Shown: piece after piece, positions 1,084-13,732 of the stretch
Position numbering within the stretch: position 1 is the stretch's first letter
Layout of the letters: the number at the start of each line of letters is the position of its first letter
Origin: Methyloversatilis sp.
Lineage (GTDB): Bacteria; Pseudomonadota; Gammaproteobacteria; Burkholderiales; Rhodocyclaceae
Direction of reading: 5' to 3'
DNA: 64,000 nt
Assembly: GCA_017984755.1 (NCBI GenBank)
Contig: JAGNYW010000009.1
Location: forward strand, 1-64,000
The notes under the pieces: model-generated
Databases searched by the model: none
Told to the model about the DNA's origin: nothing
What the model saw: the letters and a program-made list of their open reading frames with translations, nothing else
Program-made: the position numbers and the translations under genes

Positions 1084-2406
1084 ATGAGCACGATCAATAT
1101 AGAAGTACCCGACATCGGTGACTTCACCGATGTTCCGGTCATCGAAGTCCTGGTCAAACCGGGCGACCGCGTCGAACTGGACGCACCGCTGGTGACACTG
1201 GAATCCGACAAGGCCACGATGGATATCCCGGCGCCGGCAGCCGGCGTGATCGGTCAGATCACGGTGAAGGTCGGTGACCGCGTGTCGCAGGGCGCCACCA
1301 TCGGCACGATGGAAATCGCCGCAGCACCGATCGCCGCCTCCGCCGCACCTGCTGCGGCGGTAGCCAGTCCGGTTGCAGCACCGGTCACGGCTCCCCCCGC
1401 TCCGGCTGCCGTTCCGCCGGTCACGACTGCCGTACAGTTGCCGACGGCAGCGGCCATCGCGCCGGATCGTGTGGGCGGCAACAAGGCGCACGCCAGTCCA
1501 TCGATGCGCGCGTTCGCGCGCGAGCTGGGTGTCGACCTGCTGCGCGTCAAGGCATCCGGCCCGAAAGGGCGGATCACGCGCGAAGACATCAATACCTACG
1601 TCAAGGGCGCGCTGCAGGCCCCGCCATCGGCAGTCGCGTCGGGGTCAGCCGGCGGCAGCGGACTGGATCTGCTGCCCTGGCCGAAGGTCGATTTCGCGAA
1701 GTTCGGCGCAGTCGAGCGCAAACCGTTGTCGCGCATCGGCAAGCTTTCGGCTGCAAACCTGTCGCGCAACTGGGTGATGATTCCGGCGGTTACGTATCAC
1801 GAAGAAGCGGATGTCACCGACCTGGAGGCCTTCCGTCAGCAGATCAATGCCGAACAGGCCAAGGCCGGCGTCAAGCTGACCATGCTGGCCTTCATCATCA
1901 AGGCCGTGTGCTCGGCGCTGAAGAAATTCCCGGAATTCAACAGCTCCATCGACCTGCAGGCCGATGAACCGGCGCTGATCATGAAGCAGTACTGCCACAT
2001 AGGCTTCGCCGCCGACACGCCGGGCGGACTGGTGGTGCCGGTCATCCGCGACGCCGACAGGAAGGGCGTGGCCCAGCTCGCGGCCGAATGCGGCGAGCTG
2101 GCGGCCAAGGCGCGCGACGGCAAGTTGAGCGCGACAGACATGCAGGGCGCCTGCTTCACCGTTTCCAGCGTCGGCGGGCTCGGTGGCACCGGCTTCGCGC
2201 CCATCATCAACGCGCCCGAAGTGGCCATCCTCGGCGTGAGCCGCACGACGATGAAGCCAGTGTGGGACGGCACGGCCTTCCAGCCGCGCCTGATACTGCC
2301 GCTGTCGCTGACCGCGGATCACCGCGTGGTCGACGGCGCCGCTGCTACCCGCTTCAACGCACACGTCGCCGCATTGCTGGCCGACATGCGCCGCGTGCTG
2401 ATGTAA
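1084..2406 (+). CDS. aceF: Dihydrolipoyllysine-residue acetyltransferase (pyruvate dehydrogenase E2)
   Basis: The 440-residue product is the E2 core of the pyruvate dehydrogenase complex and transfers acetyl groups from lipoamide to CoA. One N-terminal lipoyl domain (about 1-75) carries the lipoylation lysine K43 in an ESDKATMDIP context. An Ala/Pro-rich linker follows (about 80-130), then a peripheral-subunit-binding domain starting near ASPSMRAFARELGVD (about 137-172). The catalytic acetyltransferase domain ends with the DHRVVDGAAA motif that holds the active-site His and Asp. E2 proteins carry one to three lipoyl domains, and this one has a single domain. The downstream lpdA starts 10 bp after the stop and supplies another lipoyl domain, so the two genes are almost certainly co-transcribed with aceE. 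Confidence 0.96.
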   Translation: MSTINIEVPDIGDFTDVPVIEVLVKPGDRVELDAPLVTLESDKATMDIPAPAAGVIGQITVKVGDRVSQGATIGTMEIAAAPIAASAAPAAAVASPVAAPVTAPPAPAAVPPVTTAVQLPTAAAIAPDRVGGNKAHASPSMRAFARELGVDLLRVKASGPKGRITREDINTYVKGALQAPPSAVASGSAGGSGLDLLPWPKVDFAKFGAVERKPLSRIGKLSAANLSRNWVMIPAVTYHEEADVTDLEAFRQQINAEQAKAGVKLTMLAFIIKAVCSALKKFPEFNSSIDLQADEPALIMKQYCHIGFAADTPGGLVVPVIRDADRKGVAQLAAECGELAAKARDGKLSATDMQGACFTVSSVGGLGGTGFAPIINAPEVAILGVSRTTMKPVWDGTAFQPRLILPLSLTADHRVVDGAAATRFNAHVAALLADMRRVLM

Positions 2407-2416
2407 GGAGACCGAC

Positions 2417-4195
2417 ATGAGCACACTGACTGTAAAAATCCCCGACATCGGCGACTTCACGGACATCCCCATCATTGAAATCATGGTGAAGCCGGGCGAC
2501 ACGGTGGAGGCCGACGCGCCGCTGATGTCACTCGAGTCCGACAAGGCCACGATGGACATTCCGGCACCGCAGGCCGGCCGCATCGTCGAACTGCTGGTGA
2601 AGGCCGGCGACCGCGTGTCCGAAGGCAGCGTGGTGCTGACGATGGAATCGGCAGGCGTGTCCGCGGCTGCCGCGGCGCCGCCTGCCGCCCCTGCCACGAC
2701 GCCGGCACCCGCTCCAGCCACCACTCCGGTCGCCGCCACAGGCAGCGCACCGGCCAGGGCCGATGAAAGCTGCGCCGTGCTGGTGATCGGCGGCGGCCCA
2801 GGCGGCTATTCGGCCGCCTTCCGCGCAGCCGACCTCGGGCTGGATGTGATCATCGTCGAGCGCTACGCGACGCTGGGCGGCGTGTGCCTGAACGTCGGCT
2901 GCATTCCGTCGAAAGCGCTGCTGCACGTCGCCGCGGTGGCCGACGAGGCGGAGGCGCTGGCTGCACACGGCATCAAGTTCGGCGCGCGCGAGATCGATCT
3001 GGGTGCCTTGCGCGGCTGGAAGGACAAGGTCGTCGGCAAACTGACCGGCGGCCTGGCCGGCATGGCCCGGGCACGCAAGGTCAAGGTCATGCGCGGCACG
3101 GCGCAGTTCGTCGATCCGCACCATGTCGAGGTCGCACTGACGTCGGGCGACGGCAGGCAGACGACCGGCGAAGTGAAGGTACTGAATTTCGGGCACTGCA
3201 TCGTCGCGGCCGGCAGTCAGTCGGTGAAGCTGCCCTTCATGCCGGTCGATCCGCGCGTCGTCGACTCGACCGGCGCACTGCTGCTCGCCGACATCCCGAA
3301 ACGCATGCTGGTCATCGGCGGCGGCATCATCGGCCTCGAAATGGCGACCGTCTATTCAACGCTGGGCGCGCGCATCGAGGTGGTGGAAATGACCGGGGGG
3401 CTGATGCAGGGTGCCGATCGCGATCTGGTCAAGGTGTGGGAAAAGAGGAACGCGCACCGCTTCGACGCCGTCATGCTGAACACCCGCGTCAACGGCGCCG
3501 AGGCGACGCCCGACGGCATCAGGGTCAGCTTCGAAGGTGCGAAGGCGCCGGCCGCTCCGCAGACCTACGACCGTGTGCTGGTCGCAGTCGGCCGCACGCC
3601 CAATGGCCGCACGCTGAACGCCGAAGCCGCCGGACTGCAGGTGACCGAGCGCGGTTTCATCGCGGTCGATAGCCAGATGCGCACCAATCTGGCGCACATC
3701 CACGCCATCGGCGACATCGTCGGCCAGCCCATGCTGGCGCACAAGGCGGTGCATGAAGGCCATGTCGCGGCGGAAGTGATCGCCGGGCACAAGCGCCATT
3801 TCGACGCCACCGTGATCCCGTCGGTCGCCTATACCGACCCGGAAGTTGCGTGGGTCGGTCTGACAGAGGACGAAGCGAAAGCACAGGGACAGACAGTGAC
3901 CGTCGGGAAATTCCCGTGGGCTGCAAGTGGTCGCGCCATTGCGAACGGGCGCGACGAAGGCTTCACCAAGCTGCTGTTCGATGCCGCGACGCATCGCATC
4001 GTCGGCGGCGGCATCGTCGGCGTATCAGCCGGGGACATGATCGGCGAAGTCGCACTGGCGATCGAGATGGGGGCCGATGCGGTCGATATCGGTCACACCA
4101 TCCACCCGCATCCGACGCTGGGGGAAAGCATCGGTCTGGCGGCGGAGGTGGCGGAAGGCAGTTGCACAGACCTGCCGCCGCTCAAACGTGCCTGA
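2417..4195 (+). CDS. lpdA: Dihydrolipoyl dehydrogenase with N-terminal lipoyl domain (E3)
   Basis: This 592-residue flavoprotein reoxidises dihydrolipoamide with NAD+ and completes the pyruvate dehydrogenase complex. Residues 1-75 form a lipoyl domain nearly identical in layout to that of AceF, with K43 in ESDKATMDIP. After a Pro/Ala linker comes the FAD-binding VIGGGPGGYSAA motif (from about residue 121). The redox-active disulfide is in GGVCLNVGCIPSK (cysteines near 156 and 161), the NAD-binding motif is VIGGGIIGLEMA, and the C-terminal HPHPTLGES contains the His-Glu pair. Ordinary E3 is about 470 residues, and the extra length is the lipoyl domain. The start follows an AAGGAG ribosome binding site 10 bp after aceF. 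Confidence 0.96.
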   Translation: MSTLTVKIPDIGDFTDIPIIEIMVKPGDTVEADAPLMSLESDKATMDIPAPQAGRIVELLVKAGDRVSEGSVVLTMESAGVSAAAAAPPAAPATTPAPAPATTPVAATGSAPARADESCAVLVIGGGPGGYSAAFRAADLGLDVIIVERYATLGGVCLNVGCIPSKALLHVAAVADEAEALAAHGIKFGAREIDLGALRGWKDKVVGKLTGGLAGMARARKVKVMRGTAQFVDPHHVEVALTSGDGRQTTGEVKVLNFGHCIVAAGSQSVKLPFMPVDPRVVDSTGALLLADIPKRMLVIGGGIIGLEMATVYSTLGARIEVVEMTGGLMQGADRDLVKVWEKRNAHRFDAVMLNTRVNGAEATPDGIRVSFEGAKAPAAPQTYDRVLVAVGRTPNGRTLNAEAAGLQVTERGFIAVDSQMRTNLAHIHAIGDIVGQPMLAHKAVHEGHVAAEVIAGHKRHFDATVIPSVAYTDPEVAWVGLTEDEAKAQGQTVTVGKFPWAASGRAIANGRDEGFTKLLFDAATHRIVGGGIVGVSAGDMIGEVALAIEMGADAVDIGHTIHPHPTLGESIGLAAEVAEGSCTDLPPLKRA

Positions 4196-4444
4196 AAGAT
4201 CGAGAGTTGTCAGAATTCTTTACAGCTCACTCATCCGCCCATCTGACGCATGGATGCAAGGCACTGAATACGTGTGTTTTTCTAAAAAAAACCATCGCGG
4301 CATCTTTTTTGCTTTGCCATGGGTGAGAGCATCAAGTTCAGCGTCACTTGTGTCTTTGGGTTACGAGTGTGACGCATTGACTTAACGCCTGCGTGGTTTT
4401 TGGCGAACCTAGCCATACTTGCAAGCTCATCGGGCAGAGATTTC

Positions 4445-5290
4445 ATGAATCAGATCAACGAAAACAACGATAGCGAACGTCAGGGCGAACAGCCTTCGAC
4501 CATTCAAGGTGCGTCGCAAACCCGACGCCGCTTCGTTTCCGGCAGCCTGAGTGCGGCACCGGTTCTTCTCGCACTGCAGTCGTCATCTGCGCTCGCCACG
4601 ACCTGCCGCACGCCGTCGCGCATGATGTCGGGCAACCTGAGCAATCACGGCGACAAGACGACCTGCATGGCAGGACGTTCGCCGGGTTTCTGGGTACAGC
4701 CGCAGAAATTCGGAGAATGGCGCGTTGATAAGCCGACACTGCAGGAGCGGAAACTCAATCCGTCCCCGTCCTGGAGAGACATCACCTCAGGGTCGCCGTC
4801 ACTCGAAAAATTCACCTATACGTCGCTGCCGCCCGCTCAGGGCGACTGCCGTGTCAAGCCGGCAGATGACGCAAATCCTGTGAGCGTTGATTTCGGCGCA
4901 ATGTTCGAAGACATCTTCGTGCATCGCCGTAGCATGAACAACGTTCTTCCGTCGCCCGTAAAGGCGTCGGAACTCGGTACCAAGGCACCGGTGGTCGACA
5001 CCTTCCGCAAGATTTCCTTCTGGGAAATTCTTGCTTACCCGACCCAACTGGGCATTGATGCCGTTACCGCACAGCTTGCACGGCACTGCATCGCAGCTTA
5101 TTTGAACGCCCTGATGGCGGAGGCGACCGGGCAGTTCTATCCCATCACCTCGCAACAGGCGATCTACATGTGGCAGGACGGATCCGCGGGCGGCTACTGC
5201 GCGATCGATAACTGCTCGGCGCCCTGGTCGGCCGCGCAGATCATCGATTACATCAAGAGTACTTTTGACGGTCAGTTCATGGACTATTGA
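4445..5290 (+). CDS. Putative Tat-exported protein of unknown function, first gene of the HprK-related kinase operon
   Basis: I do not recognise this 281-residue protein. ATG 4445 is preferred over an in-frame TTG at 4400 because it sits after an AGAG-type ribosome binding site and puts a signal sequence near the N terminus. After about 25 polar residues there is a twin-arginine-like motif TRRRFVSG, a hydrophobic stretch and an SSALA cleavage-like site, so Tat export is plausible. The mature part has scattered cysteines (TTCRTP, KTTCMAG, GDCRV, ARHCIAA, GYCAIDNCSAPW) and many aromatic residues. No enzyme motif is evident. Its stop overlaps the start of the PqqD-like gene by one base (TGATG), which ties it to the kinase and nucleotidyltransferase downstream. 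By position it is a candidate substrate of that machinery; this is inference. Confidence 0.7.
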   Translation: MNQINENNDSERQGEQPSTIQGASQTRRRFVSGSLSAAPVLLALQSSSALATTCRTPSRMMSGNLSNHGDKTTCMAGRSPGFWVQPQKFGEWRVDKPTLQERKLNPSPSWRDITSGSPSLEKFTYTSLPPAQGDCRVKPADDANPVSVDFGAMFEDIFVHRRSMNNVLPSPVKASELGTKAPVVDTFRKISFWEILAYPTQLGIDAVTAQLARHCIAAYLNALMAEATGQFYPITSQQAIYMWQDGSAGGYCAIDNCSAPWSAAQIIDYIKSTFDGQFMDY

Positions 5291-5583
5291 TGTTTTCGGC
5301 TGTCGTGGAACAGCGCTGGAGCCTGCATGACAGGCTACAGCGCTCTGCTGACTGGGACGACGGTATTGCCGTCTGGCACGAGCAGACCGGGCAGACTGTT
5401 GCTCTCGCGCCGTTCGCTGCAGCCGTGTTCTCGCAACTCGAAGCATCAGGCTGCGCCGGGCACGATGAGATAGTTGACACGCTCTCCCGCGATGAATCAG
5501 GCGATCGTGACCGAATCGCCCTGCTTGTGGCGCAAACACTTCTAGAATTCGAGCGGCTGGATATTGCTTTCCGCCACTCTTGA
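5290..5583 (+). CDS. PqqD-like protein (HPr-rel-A-type peptide-binding partner)
   Basis: A 97-residue protein with the layout of PqqD-like domains: an N-terminal beta-rich part (IAVWHEQTGQTVAL), a helix with APFAAAVFSQLE, and a C-terminal helical part starting at HDEIVDTLSRD. PqqD-type domains bind leader peptides or substrate proteins and present them to modifying enzymes. Here the neighbour is an HprK-related kinase, and paired PqqD-like/HprK-related genes are a known but functionally unresolved combination. The ATG at 5290 overlaps the previous stop by one base, and the 3' end overlaps the kinase gene by four bases, so the genes are probably translationally coupled. Assignment rests on size, residue pattern and context rather than on a diagnostic motif. 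Confidence 0.72.
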   Translation: MFSAVVEQRWSLHDRLQRSADWDDGIAVWHEQTGQTVALAPFAAAVFSQLEASGCAGHDEIVDTLSRDESGDRDRIALLVAQTLLEFERLDIAFRHS

Positions 5584-6488
5584 TACTTTCCGAACTTACC
5601 GAAAACGACCTGCGCGCCAGACTGGCCGGCGGACTGACCCTGCGGATTGCACCCGTGGCGGTGCGCGTCCATTCGTCCATTGCATCGGTTGCCACCGGGC
5701 TGGCCGCCCATTACGGCGAACATGACGTTCTGGATGACGACGCGTTCGCCGATTTTCACATCGGGCTGCACCGCCCGCCCGGACTGAGGCATTTCTTCCG
5801 TCCGCAGGTGGACTTCCTGTTCGATGCGGAAAAGCCTTTCAAGCCCCTGCCGCTGGACCAGGCCTACCCGTTCTTCGAATGGGGTCTCAACTGGTGCATG
5901 GCAAACAGCTATCACCGCTTCGTGGTCATGCACGCGGCGGTCGTTGAGCGCAACGGCTTTGCCGTCGTGTTGCCGGCGCCACCCGGCTCCGGCAAGAGCA
6001 CCTTGTGCGCTGCGCTGGTGTGCAACGGCTGGCGGCTGTTTTCCGACGAGCTCGCCCTGTGCGCACCCGGCTGCACGGCACTGGTGCCGATGCCGAGGCC
6101 GGTTTGCCTGAAGAACGAATCGATCGACATCATCGCCCGACACTTCGGCGCCCGCATCGGCGATCGGATAAGCGACACGCGCAAGGGCGACATCGCCTAT
6201 CTGCCGCAGCCTGCCGGCGCGACACATGGCGCCGACCGGGTCGCCGAACCGCGCTGGATCATCTTTCCGAAATATGTGGCCGGCAGTCCGCTTGCGGTCA
6301 GCCCGGTCTCGAAGCCGGAAACGGTCGTGCAGCTCGCCGAACAATGCTTCAACTACCCGGTGCTCGGCGGCGAAGCCTTCGACACGGTGTGCGCGATGGT
6401 CGATCAGTCCGAATGCCTGTCGCTCAGCTACAGCCGTTTCGATGACGTACTCGCGTGGTTCGACCGCAAGGCGGATGAAATTGGCTGA
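5580..6488 (+). CDS. HprK-related kinase
   Basis: A 302-residue P-loop kinase related to HPr(Ser) kinase/phosphorylase. The Walker A motif APPGSGKST lies near residues 133-142 and is followed by a FSDELALCAPG segment resembling the HprK Walker-B/acidic region. No N-terminal DRTGG-type domain of classical HprK is apparent, and no HPr or PTS gene lies nearby. The kinase probably phosphorylates Ser/Thr in a dedicated partner rather than HPr. The best start is TTG 5580, which overlaps the PqqD-like stop (TTGA), giving tight coupling; no better ATG exists near the N terminus. The gene overlaps the next one by 14 bp. Related kinases phosphorylate the precursor in some lasso-peptide clusters, but no lasso cyclase or protease is present here. 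Confidence 0.78.
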   Translation: MILSELTENDLRARLAGGLTLRIAPVAVRVHSSIASVATGLAAHYGEHDVLDDDAFADFHIGLHRPPGLRHFFRPQVDFLFDAEKPFKPLPLDQAYPFFEWGLNWCMANSYHRFVVMHAAVVERNGFAVVLPAPPGSGKSTLCAALVCNGWRLFSDELALCAPGCTALVPMPRPVCLKNESIDIIARHFGARIGDRISDTRKGDIAYLPQPAGATHGADRVAEPRWIIFPKYVAGSPLAVSPVSKPETVVQLAEQCFNYPVLGGEAFDTVCAMVDQSECLSLSYSRFDDVLAWFDRKADEIG

Positions 6489-7575
6489 GCGCCCGCTTCT
6501 GGTCGATGTGCTGCTGCAACCGGAGCGCGTGGCAGGCCTCGGCGGACGCGAACTGGACCTTCTGCTTCGTCAGGCGCGGGTGGCCCGCCTGATCGCCCGT
6601 CTGCAGGTCGTGCTGCAGGACGCAGGCCTCGTCGACCGTCTGCCGGTCGAATTTCGCCACCATCTGGATGCAGCCGGGCGGGCACTCGCTCATCAGCACC
6701 GCGCCCTCGACCACGAACTGGACCGATTCGTCGAACTGTTCGGGCCGATGGGCATCGAGCCCGTTCTGCTGAAGGGCGCAGCCTATGTTGCAGCCGGTCT
6801 CGACGCCGGGCGCGGGCGGACGTTCAGCGATATCGACATCCTCGTGCCCGTCGGACGCATCGCCGACGTCGAGTCCCGTCTGATGCTCGACGGCTGGGCG
6901 TGCACGATGCGCGACGAATACGATCAGCGCTACTACCGGACATGGATGCACGAGATTCCACCGCTCACCCACATGAAGCGAGGCACGTCGCTTGACGTTC
7001 ACCACGCGATCACGCCGCTGACCGCTCGCATCCGGGCCGATTCGGAAGCCATGCTCGCCATGGCCCGACCGCTCGACGGCCGCCCCGGCCTGCGCACCCT
7101 GTGTCCGGCCGACCGCTTCCTGCACAGCGCAGCCCACCTCTTTCTGGACGGCGACTTCGACGCCGGGCTGCGCGACATGTTCGACCTGCGCAGCCTGCTG
7201 CAGGAAGGACGCGCAGCCGATCCGGCTTTTTCCGCGGCACTCGGACGTCGCGCGGGCGAAGTCGGCCTCGAATTGCCGCTGGGCTATGCGCTGCACTATC
7301 TCGAACACCTTCTCGAAGTCCGCGACCTCGACGAGGTGCGTTCGGCCATGACGCGGCCGGTGCCGCGTGGCTTGAGGCTCGCCTGGATGGACAGCCTGTT
7401 TTCCCGGGTGCTGGTGCCGCACCACCCGAGTTGCGCCGATGCCCTGACGTCCTCCGCAAAACAGGCCCTCTACGTGCGCGGACACTGGTTGCGCATGCCC
7501 CTGCACCTTCTTTTGGCGCATCTGACGCGCAAAGCCTTGCGTCGGGAGGAGGAGAGCCCGGACAATCCGGGTTAA
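6475..7575 (+). CDS. Nucleotidyltransferase-family protein of the HprK-related operon
   Basis: A 366-residue protein with a nucleotidyltransferase-type active site. It has a VLLKGAAY segment (about 99) followed by [10 protein letters not shown] (about 116-125), whose two aspartates match the D-x-D metal-binding pattern of this fold (the NTP_transf_5-like group). A C-terminal helical region contains [12 protein letters not shown]. The frame is open upstream, but ATG 6475 is the sensible start because longer versions run deep inside the kinase gene. The overlap with the kinase is 14 bp. In some lasso-peptide clusters a homologous nucleotidyltransferase further modifies a kinase-phosphorylated serine, which suggests sequential tailoring here. 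The donor and acceptor are unknown. Confidence 0.75.
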
Positions 7576-7591
7576 GCCCTCACACCTGCAC

Positions 7592-8272
7592 ATGAACATG
7601 ACCACCCAGGACGAACTGAAACGCCAGACTGCGATCGCAGCGCTCGATCATGTGATCGCCGGAGAATTTCTCGGCGTCGGCACCGGATCGACCGCCAACC
7701 ACTTCATCGATGGACTCGCAGCGCGCAGGATTGCGATCACGGGAGCCATCGCCAGTTCCGAAGCATCGGCTGCGCGCCTGCGCAGTCACGGGATTCCGGT
7801 GCTCACGCTCGACGAAGTGATCGCGTCCGGCAGACGCATCCCGGTCTATGTCGACGGCGCCGACGAAATCGATCCCGGCCTGCACATGATCAAGGGCGGT
7901 GGTGGCGCGCTGACGCGTGAAAAGATCGTCGCGGCGGCCTCCGACTGTTTCGTCTGCATCGCCGACGGTTCGAAGTGCGTCGAGGTGATGGGACGATTCC
8001 CGCTGCCGATCGAGGTGATTCCGATGGCACTCCGACTGGTGGAGCGCGAGCTGTGCAAGCTCGGAGGCACGCCGAAGCTGCGCGAAGGCTTCGTGACGGA
8101 CAACGGCAACCTCATCCTGGACGTATCCGGCCTGCAGATTACCGATCCTGTCGCATTCGAAAGCGAACTTGATCATCTGACGGGTACAGTGACGAACGGA
8201 CTGTTCGCGCGCCGCCGTGCCGACATCGCGCTGATTTCATCGGCAGATGGCGTACGCACTCTGCGCGCGTAA
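7592..8272 (+). CDS. rpiA: Ribose-5-phosphate isomerase A
   Basis: A 226-residue cytosolic enzyme that interconverts ribose 5-phosphate and ribulose 5-phosphate. The family motifs are visible: [12 protein letters not shown] near the N terminus (phosphate-binding), YVDGADEID around residue 87 with catalytic acidic residues, and [11 protein letters not shown] just after it. Length matches the family (about 220). The start could be ATG 7592 or the second ATG at 7598. It begins 16 bp after the nucleotidyltransferase gene and could be read through from it. It also supplies ribulose 5-phosphate, the substrate of the phosphoribulokinase encoded later in the window. Confidence 0.95.
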
Positions 8273-8349
8273 CGCACTTGCAAGCGCCTGAAAAAACCTC
8301 CCGGCAATACGCCTGAATTCGAAGCCCCGATCCGGAAGCACTGACAGAC

Positions 8350-9051
8350 ATGAGCGAACACATTTCCAAGCGCTACGACCACGAACTCGAGGGTGTGCGG
8401 ACCGGCCTGCTGCAGATGGGCGGCCTCATCGAGCAGCAGATCGAGCACGCCATGCGTGGTGTGATCGACCGCAACCTGCCGCTTCTGGAAGAGGTCATCG
8501 CCAACGACAAGAAGGTCAACGCGATGGAAATCGAGCTGGACGATGCCTGCAATCACCTGATTGCGAAGCGTCAACCGGCCGCCAGCGACCTGCGGGTGAT
8601 CATGTCGGTGGTCAAGACCATCACCGACCTGGAACGGATCGGTGATGAGGCAAAGAAGATCGCCAAGATGGGGCGCCACATTCTGGAATCCGATGCGATA
8701 TTCGCGCCATCCGTCGAACTGCGCCATGCGGCAGGTCTGGCGACGGAAATGCTGCGCCGTACGCTCGATGCGCTGGCTCGCATGGATGTCGCAGGGGCAA
8801 CGGAGGTCGTGCGTCGCGATCGCGAGGTCGATGCCGAATTCAAATCGATCGTGCGTCAGCTCATCACATTCATGATGGAAGATCCACGCACGATTTCCTG
8901 CGGGCTGGACATGGTGTTCATCGCCAAGGCCATCGAACGCATCGGCGACCACTCGAAGAACATGGCGCAATACGTGGTGTTCATGGTCAACGGTACGGAT
9001 GTGCGACATGGCGGTCTGGCTGCGATGGAAGCGGCCGCCGCCGGCAAGTAA
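8350..9051 (+). CDS. phoU: Phosphate signalling complex protein PhoU
   Basis: A 233-residue all-helical protein with the two tandem PhoU repeats, each ending in a metal-binding E-x-x-x-D pattern (ERIGDEAKKIAK near residue 97 and ERIGDHSKNMAQY near 197). PhoU links the Pst phosphate transporter to the PhoR sensor kinase and keeps the Pho regulon off when phosphate is plentiful. No pst, phoB or phoR genes are next to it, so it stands apart from its usual partners. A polyphosphate-using enzyme (13788-15260) is nearby but separate. Length and both repeats fit the family fully. Confidence 0.94.
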   Translation: MSEHISKRYDHELEGVRTGLLQMGGLIEQQIEHAMRGVIDRNLPLLEEVIANDKKVNAMEIELDDACNHLIAKRQPAASDLRVIMSVVKTITDLERIGDEAKKIAKMGRHILESDAIFAPSVELRHAAGLATEMLRRTLDALARMDVAGATEVVRRDREVDAEFKSIVRQLITFMMEDPRTISCGLDMVFIAKAIERIGDHSKNMAQYVVFMVNGTDVRHGGLAAMEAAAAGK

Positions 9052-9057
9052 CCCGGT

Positions 9058-9903
9058 TCAGGGTTTGTCCGCGCGCTCTTCGGGGGGTGAGGTCACCCGT
9101 TGCGCAGAAACAGGTGGCACCTCCGCTGAACCGGGCGACAGCGCAAGCTGCAGATCGCGTGACAACTGCTGGGCCTGCGCCACCTGCTCGGGCTTGAGCG
9201 AAGCGGCGATTTCGTCGCGCGCGCCCCGCGCCGCAACATGGCCCTGCGACGCGGCCCGGTTGAACCACGCGTAGGCACGCATCAGGTCGAGTTCAACACC
9301 TTCACCGATGCGATGCAGACGCCCCATGTGGTACTGCGCGGAGACGTGTTGCTGGCGCGCCGCGGTGTCGAACCAGCGCGCTGCCGAAGAGTAATCCTGC
9401 AGCGTTCCGCGCCCGAGCTTGTAGGCAAGTGCAAGTTCGAACTGCGCCTGCGCATGCCCCTGGATGGCCGCCTTTTCAAGCCAATGGATGGATTCGACGA
9501 GATCTTCAGGTTCGCCTGCCCCGCCCTGTGCGAGCAGCATCGCATAATCGAACTGGGATCCGGCGTCGCCGGTTTCAGCGCGTCGGCGCTCGGCTTCCCT
9601 CGGTTCGAGTTCGGCCAGCTTGCGTTCGTGTTCGGTCGGAAGATTTGAATCGACGTCCCGCGCAATGACCGCTACCAACACCGCGAAACCGAGAACCACC
9701 CCGCCTGCCACCGCCGCGAGCGGCACCCTGCGATAGCGCACGAAGCGCTTGTGGCAATTACGACATCGAACCGGTTTGAGCCAGAATCGCCCGGCCTTCT
9801 CACCGGAGTTTTTCCAGCCGGAGTCCTTGGTGTTGCTGCTCAGGCAGTAAGGACAGGCATGCAGGCCCTGCAATACGCTGGAAACTCTGGTCGAGATGGT
9901 CAT
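9058..9903 (-). CDS. Zinc-ribbon, single-membrane-span protein with Sel1/TPR-like repeats
   Basis: A 281-residue protein of unknown function with three visible parts. An N-terminal zinc ribbon has CPYC (about 18-21) and CRNC (about 48-51). One transmembrane helix follows (about 60-82, VPLAAVAGGVVLGFAVLVAVIA). The C-terminal region is built of Sel1-type repeats, with units such as DYAMLLAQGG, FELALAYKLGRG and YHMGRLHRIGEG spaced about 36 residues apart. Sel1 repeats mediate protein-protein contacts, often in envelope signalling or stress. The topology suggests a cytosolic zinc ribbon and periplasmic repeats, but this is inference. It ends 6 bp from the phoU stop (convergent) and lies just downstream of yggX on the minus strand. 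Confidence 0.75.
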   Translation of the reverse strand: MTISTRVSSVLQGLHACPYCLSSNTKDSGWKNSGEKAGRFWLKPVRCRNCHKRFVRYRRVPLAAVAGGVVLGFAVLVAVIARDVDSNLPTEHERKLAELEPREAERRRAETGDAGSQFDYAMLLAQGGAGEPEDLVESIHWLEKAAIQGHAQAQFELALAYKLGRGTLQDYSSAARWFDTAARQQHVSAQYHMGRLHRIGEGVELDLMRAYAWFNRAASQGHVAARGARDEIAASLKPEQVAQAQQLSRDLQLALSPGSAEVPPVSAQRVTSPPEERADKP

Positions 9904-9958
9904 GACCGGAAATTATCACGTCAATGCAAAGGCTTGCCGTGAATTTATGTACCACCAG

Positions 9959-10231
9959 TCATGCTGCGGGCGGTACGAAACCCGATACCTGATCAGCACC
10001 TTCGCCGAAGAAATGCTTCTCCATCTGTTCGGCAAGATATTTGCGCGCACGCGCATCCATGAGACTGAGCCTGTTTTCGTTGATCAGCATGGTCTGATAC
10101 TTCACCCACTGCTGCCATGCTTCCTTCGATACCGACTCGAAAATCCGGGCACCCAGCGCTCCAGGCACCGGCGGGAAATCAAGTCCCTCCGCTTCCCGGC
10201 CGAGTTTGATGCAGTGAACCATGCGTGCCAT
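9959..10231 (-). CDS. yggX: Probable Fe(2+)-trafficking / oxidative damage protection protein YggX
   Basis: A 90-residue protein matching the YggX family in length and in its N-terminal [19 protein letters not shown] signature, which includes the conserved cysteine 7. The W-x-x-W-like region [18 protein letters not shown] is also typical. YggX homologues protect iron-sulfur clusters against oxidation and have been proposed to move ferrous iron in the cytosol. In many beta- and gammaproteobacteria it is a stand-alone gene or near argA; here argA lies two genes upstream on the same strand. Confidence 0.93.
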
Positions 10232-10336
10232 GCCGCGACTCCTTGAAGCATTGATGAATCCGTAATTCTAAAGGCTGGACCGTCGAGCCGGTGGAGATTG
10301 CTTGAGCGCAATCCAACCTGACCAAAGCACCTGAAA

Positions 10337-12388
10337 CTATTGGACAGACATGCGGAATCCGTTCTTGCCGTCGTGCTTTGCGACGTACATCGCCGCATCG
10401 GCGGCACCGAGCAGAGCCTCGCCGGTGAGGGCGTGCGAAGGAAAGATGGCGATGCCGGTACTCACGGTGACCCCGGCGCGTCGGCCATCGAATTCGAACA
10501 CCATGTCCGCCACGCGCTCGCCGATACGTCGCGCGAGGCCCATGATGGCAGGTTCGTCTGTATCGGGCGCCAGAACACCGAATTCGTCACCACCCAGCCG
10601 GAAAAAGATTTCGTTGCGACGAACAACAGCTCCCACTTCGCGCGCCAGCCTCACCAGCACTGCGTCGCCGGCCTGATGCCCGTAGCTGTCGTTGATCGGC
10701 TTGAAGCCGTCCAGGTCGAACAACAACAGACCAAGATGCGTTTTCCGGCGACCGGCGTCGGCAATCATGCGCTCAAGTTCTTCGTGGAAGCGACGGCGGT
10801 TGTAAAGGTTGGTCAAGGGGTCGCGTTCGGCCATCCGCACCAGCGCCTCGGCGGCGTGGCGCTCTGCAGTCACATCCTCGAAAATCCAGACCCGACCCAG
10901 GAAGCGTCCGGGAACCGCCGCGGCAACCAGCGCAGAATGCTCCCGGATGATCCGTCCGTCGTGCAGCGCGATGTCGTGAGGTTCGGTCGGCTCGCGCGAT
11001 GACAGCACATGCTGCAGACGGTCACGGTAAGCCACCTCGTCCGTGAGCAGCTTGCCGGTGCGGTCGATCAGCAGGGAGTCTCGCATTCCCGACAGATTTT
11101 CGTCCAGGGGAAAGCCCCATATGACCTTGAGCATCCTGTTGGCGTGCTGAACACGGCCGTCACGGTCAACAAACAGAACGCCCAGCTTGATGAGGTCAAG
11201 CAGCGCCTGCAGCCGCGACCGTTCCTCCTCGCTCCGCGTCAGGTAGTAATCACGCAAGCCCTGTTCGCGGCGGAGGGCGGTCACGGTGTCGAGCAATTTG
11301 AATTCGGCTTCCTTGCGGCTCTGGATGTCGTCGGCCGAGACCCGCACCCCAAGGCAGACGCCTGCGTCGTCATAGATCGGTTGCCAGTTCAGCGACACCC
11401 ACACCACGGAACCGTCGCGCCGCAGAAGCCGTACCTCGAAGCTCTCACCGCTGGCGCCAGCCAGCGCATCCTGCGCACGCGACGCGAATATCTTGCGATC
11501 CTTCTCATGCACCAGCATTTTCGCCAGATCTTCGCTGAGCAGACAATCGAGAGGGCTGTGACCGGTCACCCGCTCAATCGAACGATTCACCCAGATCAAC
11601 CTGCCCTGCGGACCGAACCATGCCTCGACCCCGAACGTGAAATCGGCGATGGCGTGAAAGCGAGCTTCGCTCTTGCGCAGCGCCATCACACGCTCTTCGA
11701 GCGCCTGCACCATCTGGTTGAAGGCGCGCGTAAGCCGGGCCAGCGCATCATCGCCATGTACCGGCAATGGCTCGACCGCTTCTGCGCGGCGCAGGGCAAT
11801 GGCCCGCTTTTCGATGCCGGCCACGCCGTCGAGCATGCCAGCCAGCACCCAGCGGGTGAGCAGCACATGCAGCGCCAGCAGTGTCAAACCAAGCGCAATC
11901 GATACATTGCGCAGCACGGCGATCGTCTGTTCGAGTTCGGCAAGGTTCGCACTGGCACGGAGCTCACCCAGCGACACACCGTGACCCGCCAGACTCAGAT
12001 CGACACGGAAATCATAAGCACCACGCCCGCCCTCCAGGCCGGCACGCAGATCCGCATGCGGCGCGCCGAGTGCGGCCGGCCCGCCGTCGGCGATCAGCAC
12101 GCGACCGGCACTGTCCCGGATTTCGAGATATTCCAGATCGCCACGCATGCGCAGCACCGAAACCTCGCGCGCAAGATGCTGTGGGCTGTTCTGGAGGATG
12201 TCGGCGACACGCCGCTGCATGTCGGTCGCCAGCAGATCGATGCGCGTCGCCTCGCGCGACACCAGATGGTCGGCGATGAACAGGTGGATGAAGGTCAGCC
12301 CGCACAGCAGAACAATACCGAGAACCGCTGACGAAGCGAGCAGTCTCCACTGCAGCGCGCCGAATCGCGGGAGCGTGACCGGCTTCAT
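10337..12388 (-). CDS. Membrane-bound PAS-GGDEF diguanylate cyclase
   Basis: A 683-residue inner-membrane protein likely to make cyclic di-GMP. Order of parts: transmembrane helix (about 14-36), periplasmic sensor region (37-155), second helix (about 158-182), HAMP-like segment, PAS domain (about 240-355), second PAS domain (about 395-510), then GGDEF domain (about 520-683). The active-site loop reads RLGGDEF, and DPLTNLYNRRRF and FDLDGFKPINDSYGH are intact, so catalysis is expected. The inhibitory I-site position reads RRNE instead of RxxD, which may weaken product inhibition. No EAL domain is present. Its start is 21 bp from the argA stop on the same strand, so co-transcription with argA is possible. 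Confidence 0.9.
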   Translation of the reverse strand: MKPVTLPRFGALQWRLLASSAVLGIVLLCGLTFIHLFIADHLVSREATRIDLLATDMQRRVADILQNSPQHLAREVSVLRMRGDLEYLEIRDSAGRVLIADGGPAALGAPHADLRAGLEGGRGAYDFRVDLSLAGHGVSLGELRASANLAELEQTIAVLRNVSIALGLTLLALHVLLTRWVLAGMLDGVAGIEKRAIALRRAEAVEPLPVHGDDALARLTRAFNQMVQALEERVMALRKSEARFHAIADFTFGVEAWFGPQGRLIWVNRSIERVTGHSPLDCLLSEDLAKMLVHEKDRKIFASRAQDALAGASGESFEVRLLRRDGSVVWVSLNWQPIYDDAGVCLGVRVSADDIQSRKEAEFKLLDTVTALRREQGLRDYYLTRSEEERSRLQALLDLIKLGVLFVDRDGRVQHANRMLKVIWGFPLDENLSGMRDSLLIDRTGKLLTDEVAYRDRLQHVLSSREPTEPHDIALHDGRIIREHSALVAAAVPGRFLGRVWIFEDVTAERHAAEALVRMAERDPLTNLYNRRRFHEELERMIADAGRRKTHLGLLLFDLDGFKPINDSYGHQAGDAVLVRLAREVGAVVRRNEIFFRLGGDEFGVLAPDTDEPAIMGLARRIGERVADMVFEFDGRRAGVTVSTGIAIFPSHALTGEALLGAADAAMYVAKHDGKNGFRMSVQ

Positions 12389-12409
12389 TTCAGTGCGGTG
12401 AAAGCGTAT

Positions 12410-13732
12410 TCAAAGAACCTTCACCAAGACCTTGCTGCGTCGCTGCGGGTTGTAGTTTTCGCGCCTGACGCGGGGCAGTGCATCGACGCCCGCTTCGACG
12501 AAACCGCGTTCGACGAACCAGTGCGCGGTCACGGTGGTCAGGACGAAGAGCCGCTTCATCCGCTCGGCGCGCGCGCGCCCTTCGACATAGCTCAGTATCT
12601 GCTCACCGTAACCGTGGCGCCGGTACTCCGGCATCACCGCAAGGCAGGCCAGTTCGGCCATTTCGTCTTCGGCGTACGGATAGAAGGCCGCGCAGCCCAT
12701 GATGACTTCATCGTGCTCGAGCACACTGAAGCGCTCGATCTCGCGCTCAAGTCTTTCACGGCCGCGACTGACCAGCGTTCCGTCCGCCTCCAGCGGCGCG
12801 ATCAGGCCGGCAACTGCCGGCACATCATCCATGCGCGCATTGCGCATGCGCGCCAGCCGCTCGCGCGAGATGACGCTGCCTACGCCCTGTGTGGTGAAGA
12901 ATTCGAGCAACAGGGCTCCGTCGAGATCGCGGTCGATCATATGGACACGCGCCACTCCGAGCTTCACCGCCCGAATCGCACGCGGCAGGTAAAGCCCCAG
13001 GTCTTCGGTGATGCCGCGCCCGGCTCCGAGCCATTCGGATGCTTCGTCGGCAGTGAGTTCGGGCACCAGCTCGCCGGACTCGTCGACGATGCCCGGTGCA
13101 TCGCACAGGTAGATCAGCTTGATCGCCTGCAGCGCGATCGCGACCGATTCGGCCACCTCTTCCATGCACAGGTTGAACACTTCGCCGGTCAGGGAATAGC
13201 CGTAGGGCTGCATCAGCACGATATCGGCGTCGACGAGTGCATCGTTCAGCGCCTCGACATCGACCTTGCGCACGGTACCGGTGTATCCGTGATCGATGCC
13301 ATCGACCACACCGACCGGTCGAGCCGTGAGGAAATTGCCGGACGCCACTTCAATGGTGCTGCCGGCCATCGGCGTATTCGGCAGCCCTTGCGAAAACAGG
13401 GCTTCGACATCGATGCGGATCGAACCGTTGGCCCGCTTCACGCAGTCCATCGCACGGGCATCCGTGACCCGCAAGCCCTTGTGGTAGCGAGGCTCGAGCC
13501 CGCGCGCGGCCAGTTCTTCCTCGATCTGCGGCCGGGCGCCGACCACCAGCACGAGCTTGATGCCGAGCGCGGCAAGCAGGTTGCAGTCCTGGACCAGTGA
13601 ATTGGCGCCCGGTCCCTGCAGCACCTCGCCACCCACTGCAATCACAAAGGTACGCCCACCAAAGGCGTGAATGTAAGGTGCAGCACTGCGCACCCAGGCT
13701 ACGAAGCGGGGTGAATCGGGATCGGCGTGCAT
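12410..13732 (-). CDS. argA: Amino-acid N-acetyltransferase (N-acetylglutamate synthase)
   Basis: A 440-residue enzyme catalysing the first step of arginine biosynthesis, acetylation of glutamate by acetyl-CoA. The N-terminal ~290 residues form the amino-acid-kinase-like domain (GGRTFVIAVGGEVLQG, then LVLVVGARPQIEEEL), which in this family binds arginine as feedback inhibitor. The C-terminal ~145 residues form a GNAT acetyltransferase domain with LAVMPEYRRHGYGEQIL as the acetyl-CoA-binding motif. Length equals that of classical proteobacterial ArgA. No other arginine genes adjoin it. Confidence 0.96.
   Translation of the reverse strand: MHADPDSPRFVAWVRSAAPYIHAFGGRTFVIAVGGEVLQGPGANSLVQDCNLLAALGIKLVLVVGARPQIEEELAARGLEPRYHKGLRVTDARAMDCVKRANGSIRIDVEALFSQGLPNTPMAGSTIEVASGNFLTARPVGVVDGIDHGYTGTVRKVDVEALNDALVDADIVLMQPYGYSLTGEVFNLCMEEVAESVAIALQAIKLIYLCDAPGIVDESGELVPELTADEASEWLGAGRGITEDLGLYLPRAIRAVKLGVARVHMIDRDLDGALLLEFFTTQGVGSVISRERLARMRNARMDDVPAVAGLIAPLEADGTLVSRGRERLEREIERFSVLEHDEVIMGCAAFYPYAEDEMAELACLAVMPEYRRHGYGEQILSYVEGRARAERMKRLFVLTTVTAHWFVERGFVEAGVDALPRVRRENYNPQRRSKVLVKVL

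What the first reader, a model, noticed from the sequence alone, without database searches (positions are those of the whole stretch)
4445..7575. Four-gene unit: exported protein, PqqD-like protein, HprK-related kinase and nucleotidyltransferase
The genes overlap by 1, 4 and 14 bp, which implies coupled translation and a joint function. A PqqD-like domain usually presents a peptide or protein to a modifying enzyme; here the enzymes are a P-loop kinase (GSGKST) and a D-x-D nucleotidyltransferase. The combination is recognised in bacteria but its substrate and purpose are unresolved. I suggest a protein-modification system: the PqqD-like protein binds a substrate, the kinase phosphorylates it, and the nucleotidyltransferase adds a group to the phosphate. 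This differs from HPr control because no PTS genes are present.
Basis: partly seen in the sequence, partly recalled or inferred. Interest (0 to 1): 0.78.

Follow-up and report, generated by a model that had tools for sequence, protein, structure and literature searches.

The report
Kinase-nucleotidyltransferase unit for an exported protein
A four-gene bacterial unit appears to phosphorylate, and probably further decorate, its own exported protein at a cluster of conserved serines, and seems to be switched on with the genes for the cell's sticky surface matrix; this would give a poorly understood enzyme set a substrate and a setting.

Summary
The four genes and their 1, 4 and 14 bp overlaps are real. 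Genes 2-4 are NCBIfam's 'HPr-rel-A' pair (PqqD-like protein, HprK-related kinase A) plus a PF14907 nucleotidyltransferase. In 101 related genomes all 32 gene-1 matches lie at a kinase locus; none in the 66 genomes without an over-cut-off kinase.

New here: (1) gene 1 matches no Pfam/NCBIfam family; its most conserved mature residues include serines spaced S-x3-S-x3-S just after a Tat-type leader. Five stand-alone relatives of its C-terminal domain lack these serines. (2) A PEP-CTERM-type enhancer box plus sigma-54 promoter precede the unit, and the kinase tracks exosortase XrtA (33 of 35 versus 9 of 66). So the unit probably belongs to the PEP-CTERM/exopolysaccharide programme.

Most likely: the PqqD-like protein holds gene 1's leader, the kinase phosphorylates the serines, the nucleotidyltransferase extends the phosphate (lasso-peptide precedent: hexose on phosphoserine), and Tat exports the product. 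The partnership is well supported; the chemistry is inferred. No structure could be predicted. My searches found no paper on this unit.

The parts
4208..4224 (+). PEP-CTERM-type enhancer box TGTCAGAATTCTTTACA (layout of motif 1 of Haft 2006, which ends TTTACA); predicted PrsR site
   Evidence: 16-base core 4209-4224 exact; at <=1 mismatch 2 matches in the window, 0.03 expected; PMC1569441 section 7 passages
4298..4313 (+). sigma-54 -24/-12 type promoter CGGCATCTTTTTTGCT, 73 nt after the box, 131 nt before the ATG
4445..5290 (+). gene 1: exported protein, proposed substrate (EXP)
   Evidence: no Pfam/NCBIfam family
4514..4597 (+). twin-arginine leader, residues 24-51 (..RRRFVSGSLSAAPVLLALQSSSALA); cleavage site after A51 by eye
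   Evidence: leader-only profile ranks this gene first in its genome (3e-7, next 0.075)
4616..4642 (+). serine triad S58-x3-S62-x3-S66, proposed phospho-acceptor sites
4673..5287 (+). GRSPGFW...AAYLN domain of the mature protein
   Evidence: domain also found in other exported-type proteins
5290..5583 (+). gene 2: PqqD-like peptide-binding protein (HPr-rel-A type)
5580..6488 (+). gene 3: HprK-related kinase A; Walker A GSGKST at 5985-6002
6475..7575 (+). gene 4: PF14907 nucleotidyltransferase; D-x-D at 6829-6837

Best explanation
The unit makes one covalently modified surface protein. Under PrsK/PrsR-sigma-54 control (inferred from the promoter), the cell makes gene 1 with its three enzymes by coupled translation. 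The PqqD-like protein binds gene 1's leader (inferred from the family) and presents the start of the mature protein. The HprK-like kinase phosphorylates one or more serines of the S-x3-S-x3-S triad (inferred from conservation and lasso-peptide precedent). The PF14907 enzyme then adds a hexose or nucleotidyl group to the phosphate (inferred from pseudomycoidin). Tat exports the folded, modified protein, which joins the PEP-CTERM/XrtA exopolysaccharide matrix or envelope. Shown here: conserved order, near-exclusive co-occurrence of gene 1 with the kinase, serine conservation and its absence from stand-alone domain relatives, the two-part promoter, co-occurrence with XrtA and PrsR. Not shown: any chemistry, export route, location or phenotype.
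For: Order: EXP found in 58 of 61 training loci (56 upstream on the same strand within 1.3 kb) and 25 of 26 held-out loci; without two near-duplicates (L062, L075) 23 of 24 held-out. Exclusivity: 32 of 35 kinase genomes, 0 of 66 others, p=3e-23, all on the same contig and strand. Serines in 80 aligned EXPs: S58 70/73, S62 68/70, S66 65/70 of rows with a residue there; held-out without duplicates 17 Ser + 1 Thr of 18, 18/18, 16/18. Domain relatives without a kinase gene in the stretch fetched: 0 of 5 have the triad before the PGYW motif. Leader-only profile: cassette EXP is the best hit in 10 of 10 kinase genomes tried. Regulation: box + sigma-54 pair in 46 of 79 versus 0.25 shuffled, 3 reverse-complement, 0 of 79 inside the cassette; 40 of 69 kinase clusters. 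XrtA 33/35 vs 9/66 and 22/27 vs 29/247; PrsR 33/35 vs 9/66. Some loci lie among XrtA-system genes. Enzyme precedent: passages of PMC9266682, PMC8498205; PF14907 also sits fused to a lasso B2-type domain.
Against: No modification, binding or export is measured. Conserved serines may be structural; N221 (66/67) is conserved just as strongly and is not an obvious acceptor. 18 of 80 aligned members lack the full Ser triad; in 7 nothing aligns there; divergent cassettes such as L022, L026, L030, L051, L053, L055, L056, L059 and L139 keep mainly the leader. Either sites differ there or the triad is not the site. Lasso kinases act on a C-terminal Ser; EXP C-termini vary. 33 of 79 upstream regions lack the promoter pair. 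Two plasmid cassettes (Vibrio, Sphingomonas) have no good box or sigma-54 site; the Sphingomonas protein has no triad and the Vibrio one has Thr at its first position, both by eye.
Confidence: 0.52

Rival explanations
1. Kinase and nucleotidyltransferase act on another molecule (a sugar or lipid of exopolysaccharide synthesis); gene 1 is just a co-regulated matrix protein encoded beside them.
For: Sugar-nucleotide, glycosyltransferase and XrtA-system genes near several copies; shared regulation fits any matrix gene.
Against: Near-exclusive pairing of gene 1 with the kinase, a PqqD-like protein in the unit, a leader distinct from ordinary Tat leaders, triad absent from the five domain relatives outside cassettes.
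Confidence: 0.18
2. Only the kinase modifies gene 1; the nucleotidyltransferase adds nucleotides (AMP/UMP), or removes or regulates the modification, so no sugar is involved.
For: PF14907 is labelled uncharacterised; PMC9266682 says true nucleotidylation followed by a host glycosyltransferase could not be excluded for PsmN.
Against: The one related case with in vivo data that I saw, PsmN, is linked to hexose addition on phosphoserine.
Confidence: 0.25
3. The unit makes a small secreted natural product (RiPP) cut from gene 1.
For: PqqD-like domain; wider relatives with 57-87 aa Tat-leader peptides beside HprK-like genes.
Against: Gene 1 keeps a conserved mature domain of about 200 aa in most members; no B2 protease or cyclase domain among the seven window neighbours scanned.
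Confidence: 0.08
4. The unit is a signalling switch like HPr kinase control of carbon use.
For: Gene 3 is named HprK-related.
Against: Weak match to true HprK (13 bits versus cut-off 240); fixed exported partner. Absence of HPr/PTS not tested.
Confidence: 0.04

Closest known systems
HPr-rel-A system (NCBIfam TIGR04352, TIGR04353)
   Same: Gene 3 is far over its cut-off and gene 2 at the edge of its own; the nucleotidyltransferase follows in most loci.
   Different: The NCBIfam names seen here cover only the enzymes; no substrate family, regulon or XrtA link appears in the output (the models' own comments were not visible).
Lasso peptides paeninodin and pseudomycoidin (HprK-like kinases PadeK/PsmK, nucleotidyltransferase PsmN)
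   Same: HprK-like kinase and a nucleotidyltransferase-family protein act in sequence on a serine (review passages); lasso pathways also have a PqqD-family chaperone (model name); PF14907 occurs fused to a B2-type domain.
   Different: No lasso cyclase or B2 protease domain beside the unit; the partner is an exported protein of about 230 aa after its leader, with internal serines, not a short peptide with a C-terminal Ser.
PEP-CTERM/exosortase XrtA exopolysaccharide system with PrsK/PrsR/RpoN
   Same: Same two-part promoter layout; tracks XrtA and PrsR.
   Different: Gene 1 has no PEP-CTERM tail (not among 33 own-genome matches) and looks like a Tat client, not an exosortase client.

Membership tests
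HPr-rel-A system | HprK_rel_A kinase over TIGR04352 cut-off | tested here: met
   365.2 bits, cut-off 200
HPr-rel-A system | PqqD relative over TIGR04353 cut-off | tested here: inconclusive
   34.3 bits, cut-off 35; 1.1e-19 with a profile from the loci that includes it
PF14907 nucleotidyltransferase | over gathering score, with D-x-D | tested here: met
   160.9 bits, cut-off 31.2; D119, D121 invariant in 27
Lasso peptide cluster | B2 protease (PF13471) and cyclase (PF00733) beside it | tested here: not met
   seven neighbouring window genes (1084-13732) scanned, neither found at E<=1e-10
Lasso peptide cluster | short precursor with C-terminal Ser as acceptor | tested here: not met
   281 aa, ends MDY
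PEP-CTERM protein | C-terminal PEP-CTERM domain TIGR02595 | tested here: not met
   no match; not in own-genome list
PEP-CTERM/PrsR-RpoN regulon | box ending TTTACA, then sigma-54 site 32-92 nt on | tested here: met
   4208-4224 and 4298-4313, spacer 73; pair in 46 of 79 loci. Only the TTTACA end and the layout were compared with the paper; its logo is not held
PEP-CTERM/PrsR-RpoN regulon | transcription depends on PrsR and RpoN | not testable with these tools
   needs mutants
Tat substrate | twin-arginine leader | tested here: inconclusive
   RR pair conserved in 77 of 78 and 78 of 78 aligned rows; no NCBIfam hit at E<=1

The most novel reading that the evidence does not exclude
A distinct protein-modification and export pathway: a leader-binding PqqD-like protein guides serine phosphorylation and then glycosyl- or nucleotidyl-transfer onto a folded Tat substrate, giving a phosphodiester-decorated (perhaps glycan-linked) protein as a second, exosortase-independent class of matrix protein in the PEP-CTERM/XrtA programme.
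Probability: 0.35. Interest if true: 0.85.

Novelty: new variant of a known kind. Interest (0 to 1): 0.72.

Why it matters
The HPr-rel-A enzymes are named but have no assigned substrate or purpose in anything I found (searches). This ties them to one exported protein family, points to three specific serines, and places them in the exopolysaccharide/floc programme of environmental bacteria, so all three claims become directly testable. If right, it extends kinase-plus-nucleotidyltransferase tailoring from lasso peptides to whole exported proteins.

Tried and rejected
Rejected: PTS-like HPr control (kinase only weakly like HprK); lasso cluster (no cyclase or B2 beside it; the Asn-synthase-like neighbours scanned in L048 and L055 are XrtA-system amidotransferases, below the lasso-cyclase cut-off); PEP-CTERM protein; known fold by sequence (gene 1: no PDB match at E<=1; its profile A3: best E=0.2; kinase: best E=0.54; nucleotidyltransferase: none).

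Weak leads, not used as evidence: triad presence versus nucleotidyltransferase directly downstream (58 of 74 with, 1 of 8 without, Fisher p=4e-4) is confounded by lineage; 4 of those 8 (L055, L056, L078, L080) have such a gene or a piece of one nearby; the one 'with triad' (L078) looks spurious; and the text pattern used there misses some triads in truncated ORFs (L032, L036).

Results that limit the promoter claim: the strict own-genome pattern found only this cassette; a looser two-part test on 30 of the 33 own PEP-CTERM genes gave 8 with total mismatch <=8 versus 1.3 shuffled and 1 reverse-complement, 17 had no pair. The box consensus was read by eye from these loci before counting, so counts are fitted; the published layout is the independent support. 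Box alone: <=4 mismatches 59 of 79 versus 3.5 shuffled but 19 on the reverse complement; <=3: 44 of 79 versus 0.6 and 2. Shuffles keep base composition only. Mean spacer here is 72.9 against 62.8 in the paper.

Counts are not all independent: 87 kinase loci form 75 clusters at 80% identity. Without the own genus XrtA is still 20/22 versus 9/66. In the class-wide searches the first look scored at most 8 to 11 candidates per genome, so some matches could be missed.
Full report
WHAT IS THERE. Genes 1-4 lie at 4445-5290, 5290-5583, 5580-6488 and 6475-7575 on the + strand with overlaps of 1, 4 and 14 bp. Genes 2 and 3 match the NCBIfam models of the HPr-rel-A system and gene 4 is a PF14907 nucleotidyltransferase. 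Gene 2 misses its curated cut-off by 0.7 bit. Gene 1 has no Pfam or NCBIfam family, alone or as 38 relatives each scanned on its own. Upstream are a dihydrolipoyl acyltransferase and a dihydrolipoyl dehydrogenase with lipoyl domain; downstream rpiA and a PhoU-domain gene; so the unit sits among housekeeping genes here.

I collected 61 kinase loci: 30 from related genomes (of 35 over the cut-off) and 31 from named genomes. Iterated profiles found a gene-1 relative in 58 of 61, 56 of them upstream on the same strand within 1.3 kb; the misses are L045 (contig edge), L057 and L058; L053 is divergent and L061 further off. Because these loci trained the profile, I tested a held-out set: the 26 further over-cut-off loci from a class-wide draw of 274 genomes. 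25 of 26 have gene 1 directly upstream; L083 starts at a contig edge. Two of the 26 (L062, L075) are near-duplicates of training loci; without them it is 23 of 24. Five held-out hits are weaker (L069, L078, L080, L085, L087; 5e-5 to 7e-8) and the aligned part is mainly the leader.

EXCLUSIVITY. Across the same 101 related genomes the gene-1 profile hits 32, all among the 35 genomes with an over-cut-off kinase, on the same contig and strand; 0 of 66 others. Three of the 32 are weak, mainly leader, matches (G065, G075, G088). In 31 of 32 the match ends 216-780 bp before the kinase match; in G065 the listed coordinates put it on the other side. Of the three kinase genomes without it, G029 and G060 have short Tat-leader proteins instead (L022, L026) and G041 a variant without triad (L139). 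Class-wide, 34 of 274 genomes hit; 23 have the kinase. Of the other 11, four have only the C-terminal domain in other proteins (G180, G184, G199, G315), two have small Tat-leader peptides beside HprK-like genes below the cut-off (G201, G284), and five weak ones were not examined (G136, G153, G158, G164, G256). Four kinase genomes missed the profile there (G191, G234, G313, G359); the locus-level profile finds a leader-type protein in three of them (L087, L069, L085) and the fourth is the contig-edge locus L083.

THE SERINES. In 38 gene-1 proteins with 19% mean column identity, only S58 and S62 are invariant and S66 is at 90% or more. In 80 profile-aligned members S58 is Ser in 70 of 73 rows with a residue there (2 Gln, 1 Thr), S62 in 68 of 70, S66 in 65 of 70; 62 of 80 have all three, 52 of 68 after clustering. 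In the held-out rows: 19/20, 20/20, 18/20; without the near-duplicates 17 Ser plus 1 Thr of 18, 18/18, 16/18, with 4 of 22 rows not aligned there. Only the twin arginines (77 and 78 of 78) and N221 (66/67) are as conserved. By eye the signal-peptidase site is after A51, which puts the triad at mature residues 7, 11 and 15. The natural control: five proteins from genomes G115, G180, G184, G199 and G315 share the 'PGYW...AALLNA' domain but have no S-x3-S-x3-S in the 45 residues before it. Two of them (L132, L133) are seen whole and start with other signal-like sequences; the N-termini of the other three were not in the stretch fetched. No kinase, nucleotidyltransferase or PqqD-like gene was found in those 2-5.5 kb stretches, though G115 has a cassette elsewhere.

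THE LEADER. A profile of leaders alone (57 rows, the window's left out) ranks the cassette protein first in each of 10 kinase genomes tried; the window's scores 3e-7 against 0.075 for the next in that genome; the weakest is 0.008 (G060). In six kinase-free genomes the best is 0.0019 to 0.18. Several of the 10 genomes gave rows to the profile; G000, G041 and G060 did not. So the leader carries more than a generic Tat signal, as expected if something else, such as the PqqD-like protein, reads it (inference).

REGULATION. Upstream of gene 1 in the window are TGTCAGAATTCTTTACA (4208-4224) and CGGCATCTTTTTTGCT (4298-4313), 73 nt apart, the second 131 nt before the ATG. Haft and colleagues described such a layout upstream of proteobacterial PEP-CTERM genes: a 17-nt motif ending TTTACA, a spacer of 32-92 nt (mean 62.8), then a sigma-54 site a mean 71 nt (s.d. 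38.5) before the start codon, tied to PrsK, PrsR and PrsT (PMC1569441, passages, chiefly section 7; the motif logos are not held). The pair is found in 46 of 79 gene-1 upstream regions (spacer mean 72.9, s.d. 11.5) against 0.25 in shuffles, 3 on the reverse complement and 0 of 79 inside the cassette; by clusters 40 of 69. Sigma-54 sites alone: 44 of 80 at <=2 mismatches versus 5.5 shuffled and 1 reverse-complement. RpoN dependence of a PEP-CTERM gene and its role in floc formation are published for Aquincola (PMC9850573, passages).

PHYLOGENETIC TIE. Exosortase XrtA over cut-off: 33 of 35 kinase genomes, 9 of 66 others (p=5e-16; without the own genus 20/22 versus 9/66, p=6e-11). Class-wide: 22 of 27 versus 29 of 247 (p=4e-14); exceptions G108, G152, G157, G286, G349. 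PrsR: 33 of 35 versus 9 of 66. These tests do not correct for shared ancestry. Flanking ORFs of 31 loci (123 of 144 chosen by length, so some may be spurious) are rich in glycosyltransferase and sugar-nucleotide families, several closest to XrtA-system models. Named cases over the models' cut-offs: PrsR in L031 and beside L052, stp3 and stp2 glycosyltransferases and XrtA amidotransferases in L048 and L055. The window's own genome has XrtA, PrsR (a match cut at its start) and 33 PEP-CTERM matches, none on this window's contig.

MECHANISM. Reviews report that HprK-like kinases phosphorylate a serine of lasso precursors, and that in pseudomycoidin a nucleotidyltransferase-family protein is needed for one or two hexoses on that phosphoserine, with true nucleotidylation not excluded (PMC8498205 section 8 and PMC9266682 section 5, passages; the primary papers are not held). 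A Deinococcus protein annotated as lasso B2 carries a PF14907 domain related to gene 4. The same logic here, with a Tat-exported protein in place of the peptide, explains why the enzymes are cytosolic, why the substrate goes by Tat (which takes folded proteins; general knowledge), and why it is encoded first and coupled. The donor, the added group and the number of sites are open.

LIMITS. No structure could be predicted. Conservation cannot tell acceptor serines from structural ones. Cassettes without the triad show that it is not universal. Literature searches found no paper on this unit or on its link to PEP-CTERM; the library lacks most subscription journals, and NCBIfam's own comments on these models were not visible, so the link may already be noted there.

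Noticed in passing
L138 1077-1250 and 2713-2892; L137 1946-2209: Small (57-87 aa) Tat-leader peptides beside HprK-like kinases that fall below the TIGR04352 cut-off; leader RRxFxKKxAYxAPVVLTL-like. May be a wider, RiPP-like branch of the same idea.
   Followed up: partly
L132-L136: A 'CTPGYW...AALLNA' type domain occurs near the C-terminus of five proteins outside the kinase unit; the 38 cassette members that carry it match no Pfam family.
   Followed up: partly
L055 about 8204-9763 and L056 about 8726-10388: Magnetococcales cassettes (L055 lies between an XrtA-system glycosyltransferase and amidotransferase) have a gap of about 1.6 kb, room for an extra gene, between kinase and nucleotidyltransferase.
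   Followed up: no
L140 (Vibrio alfacsensis plasmid pVa1) 6013-9080: Plasmid-borne cassette with a triad whose first position is Thr (by eye), without a good PEP-CTERM box or sigma-54 site upstream.
   Followed up: partly
window 2431-2446, - strand: One-mismatch match to the PEP-CTERM box inside the dihydrolipoyl dehydrogenase gene; probably chance.
   Followed up: no
own genome, L092-L121: Two kinds of PEP-CTERM tail: those with 'LALxGLALAG'-like tails tend to have the box and sigma-54 site, those with 'YAMLLAGLGLIG' tails do not, suggesting two differently controlled exosortase sets (impression, not counted).
   Followed up: no
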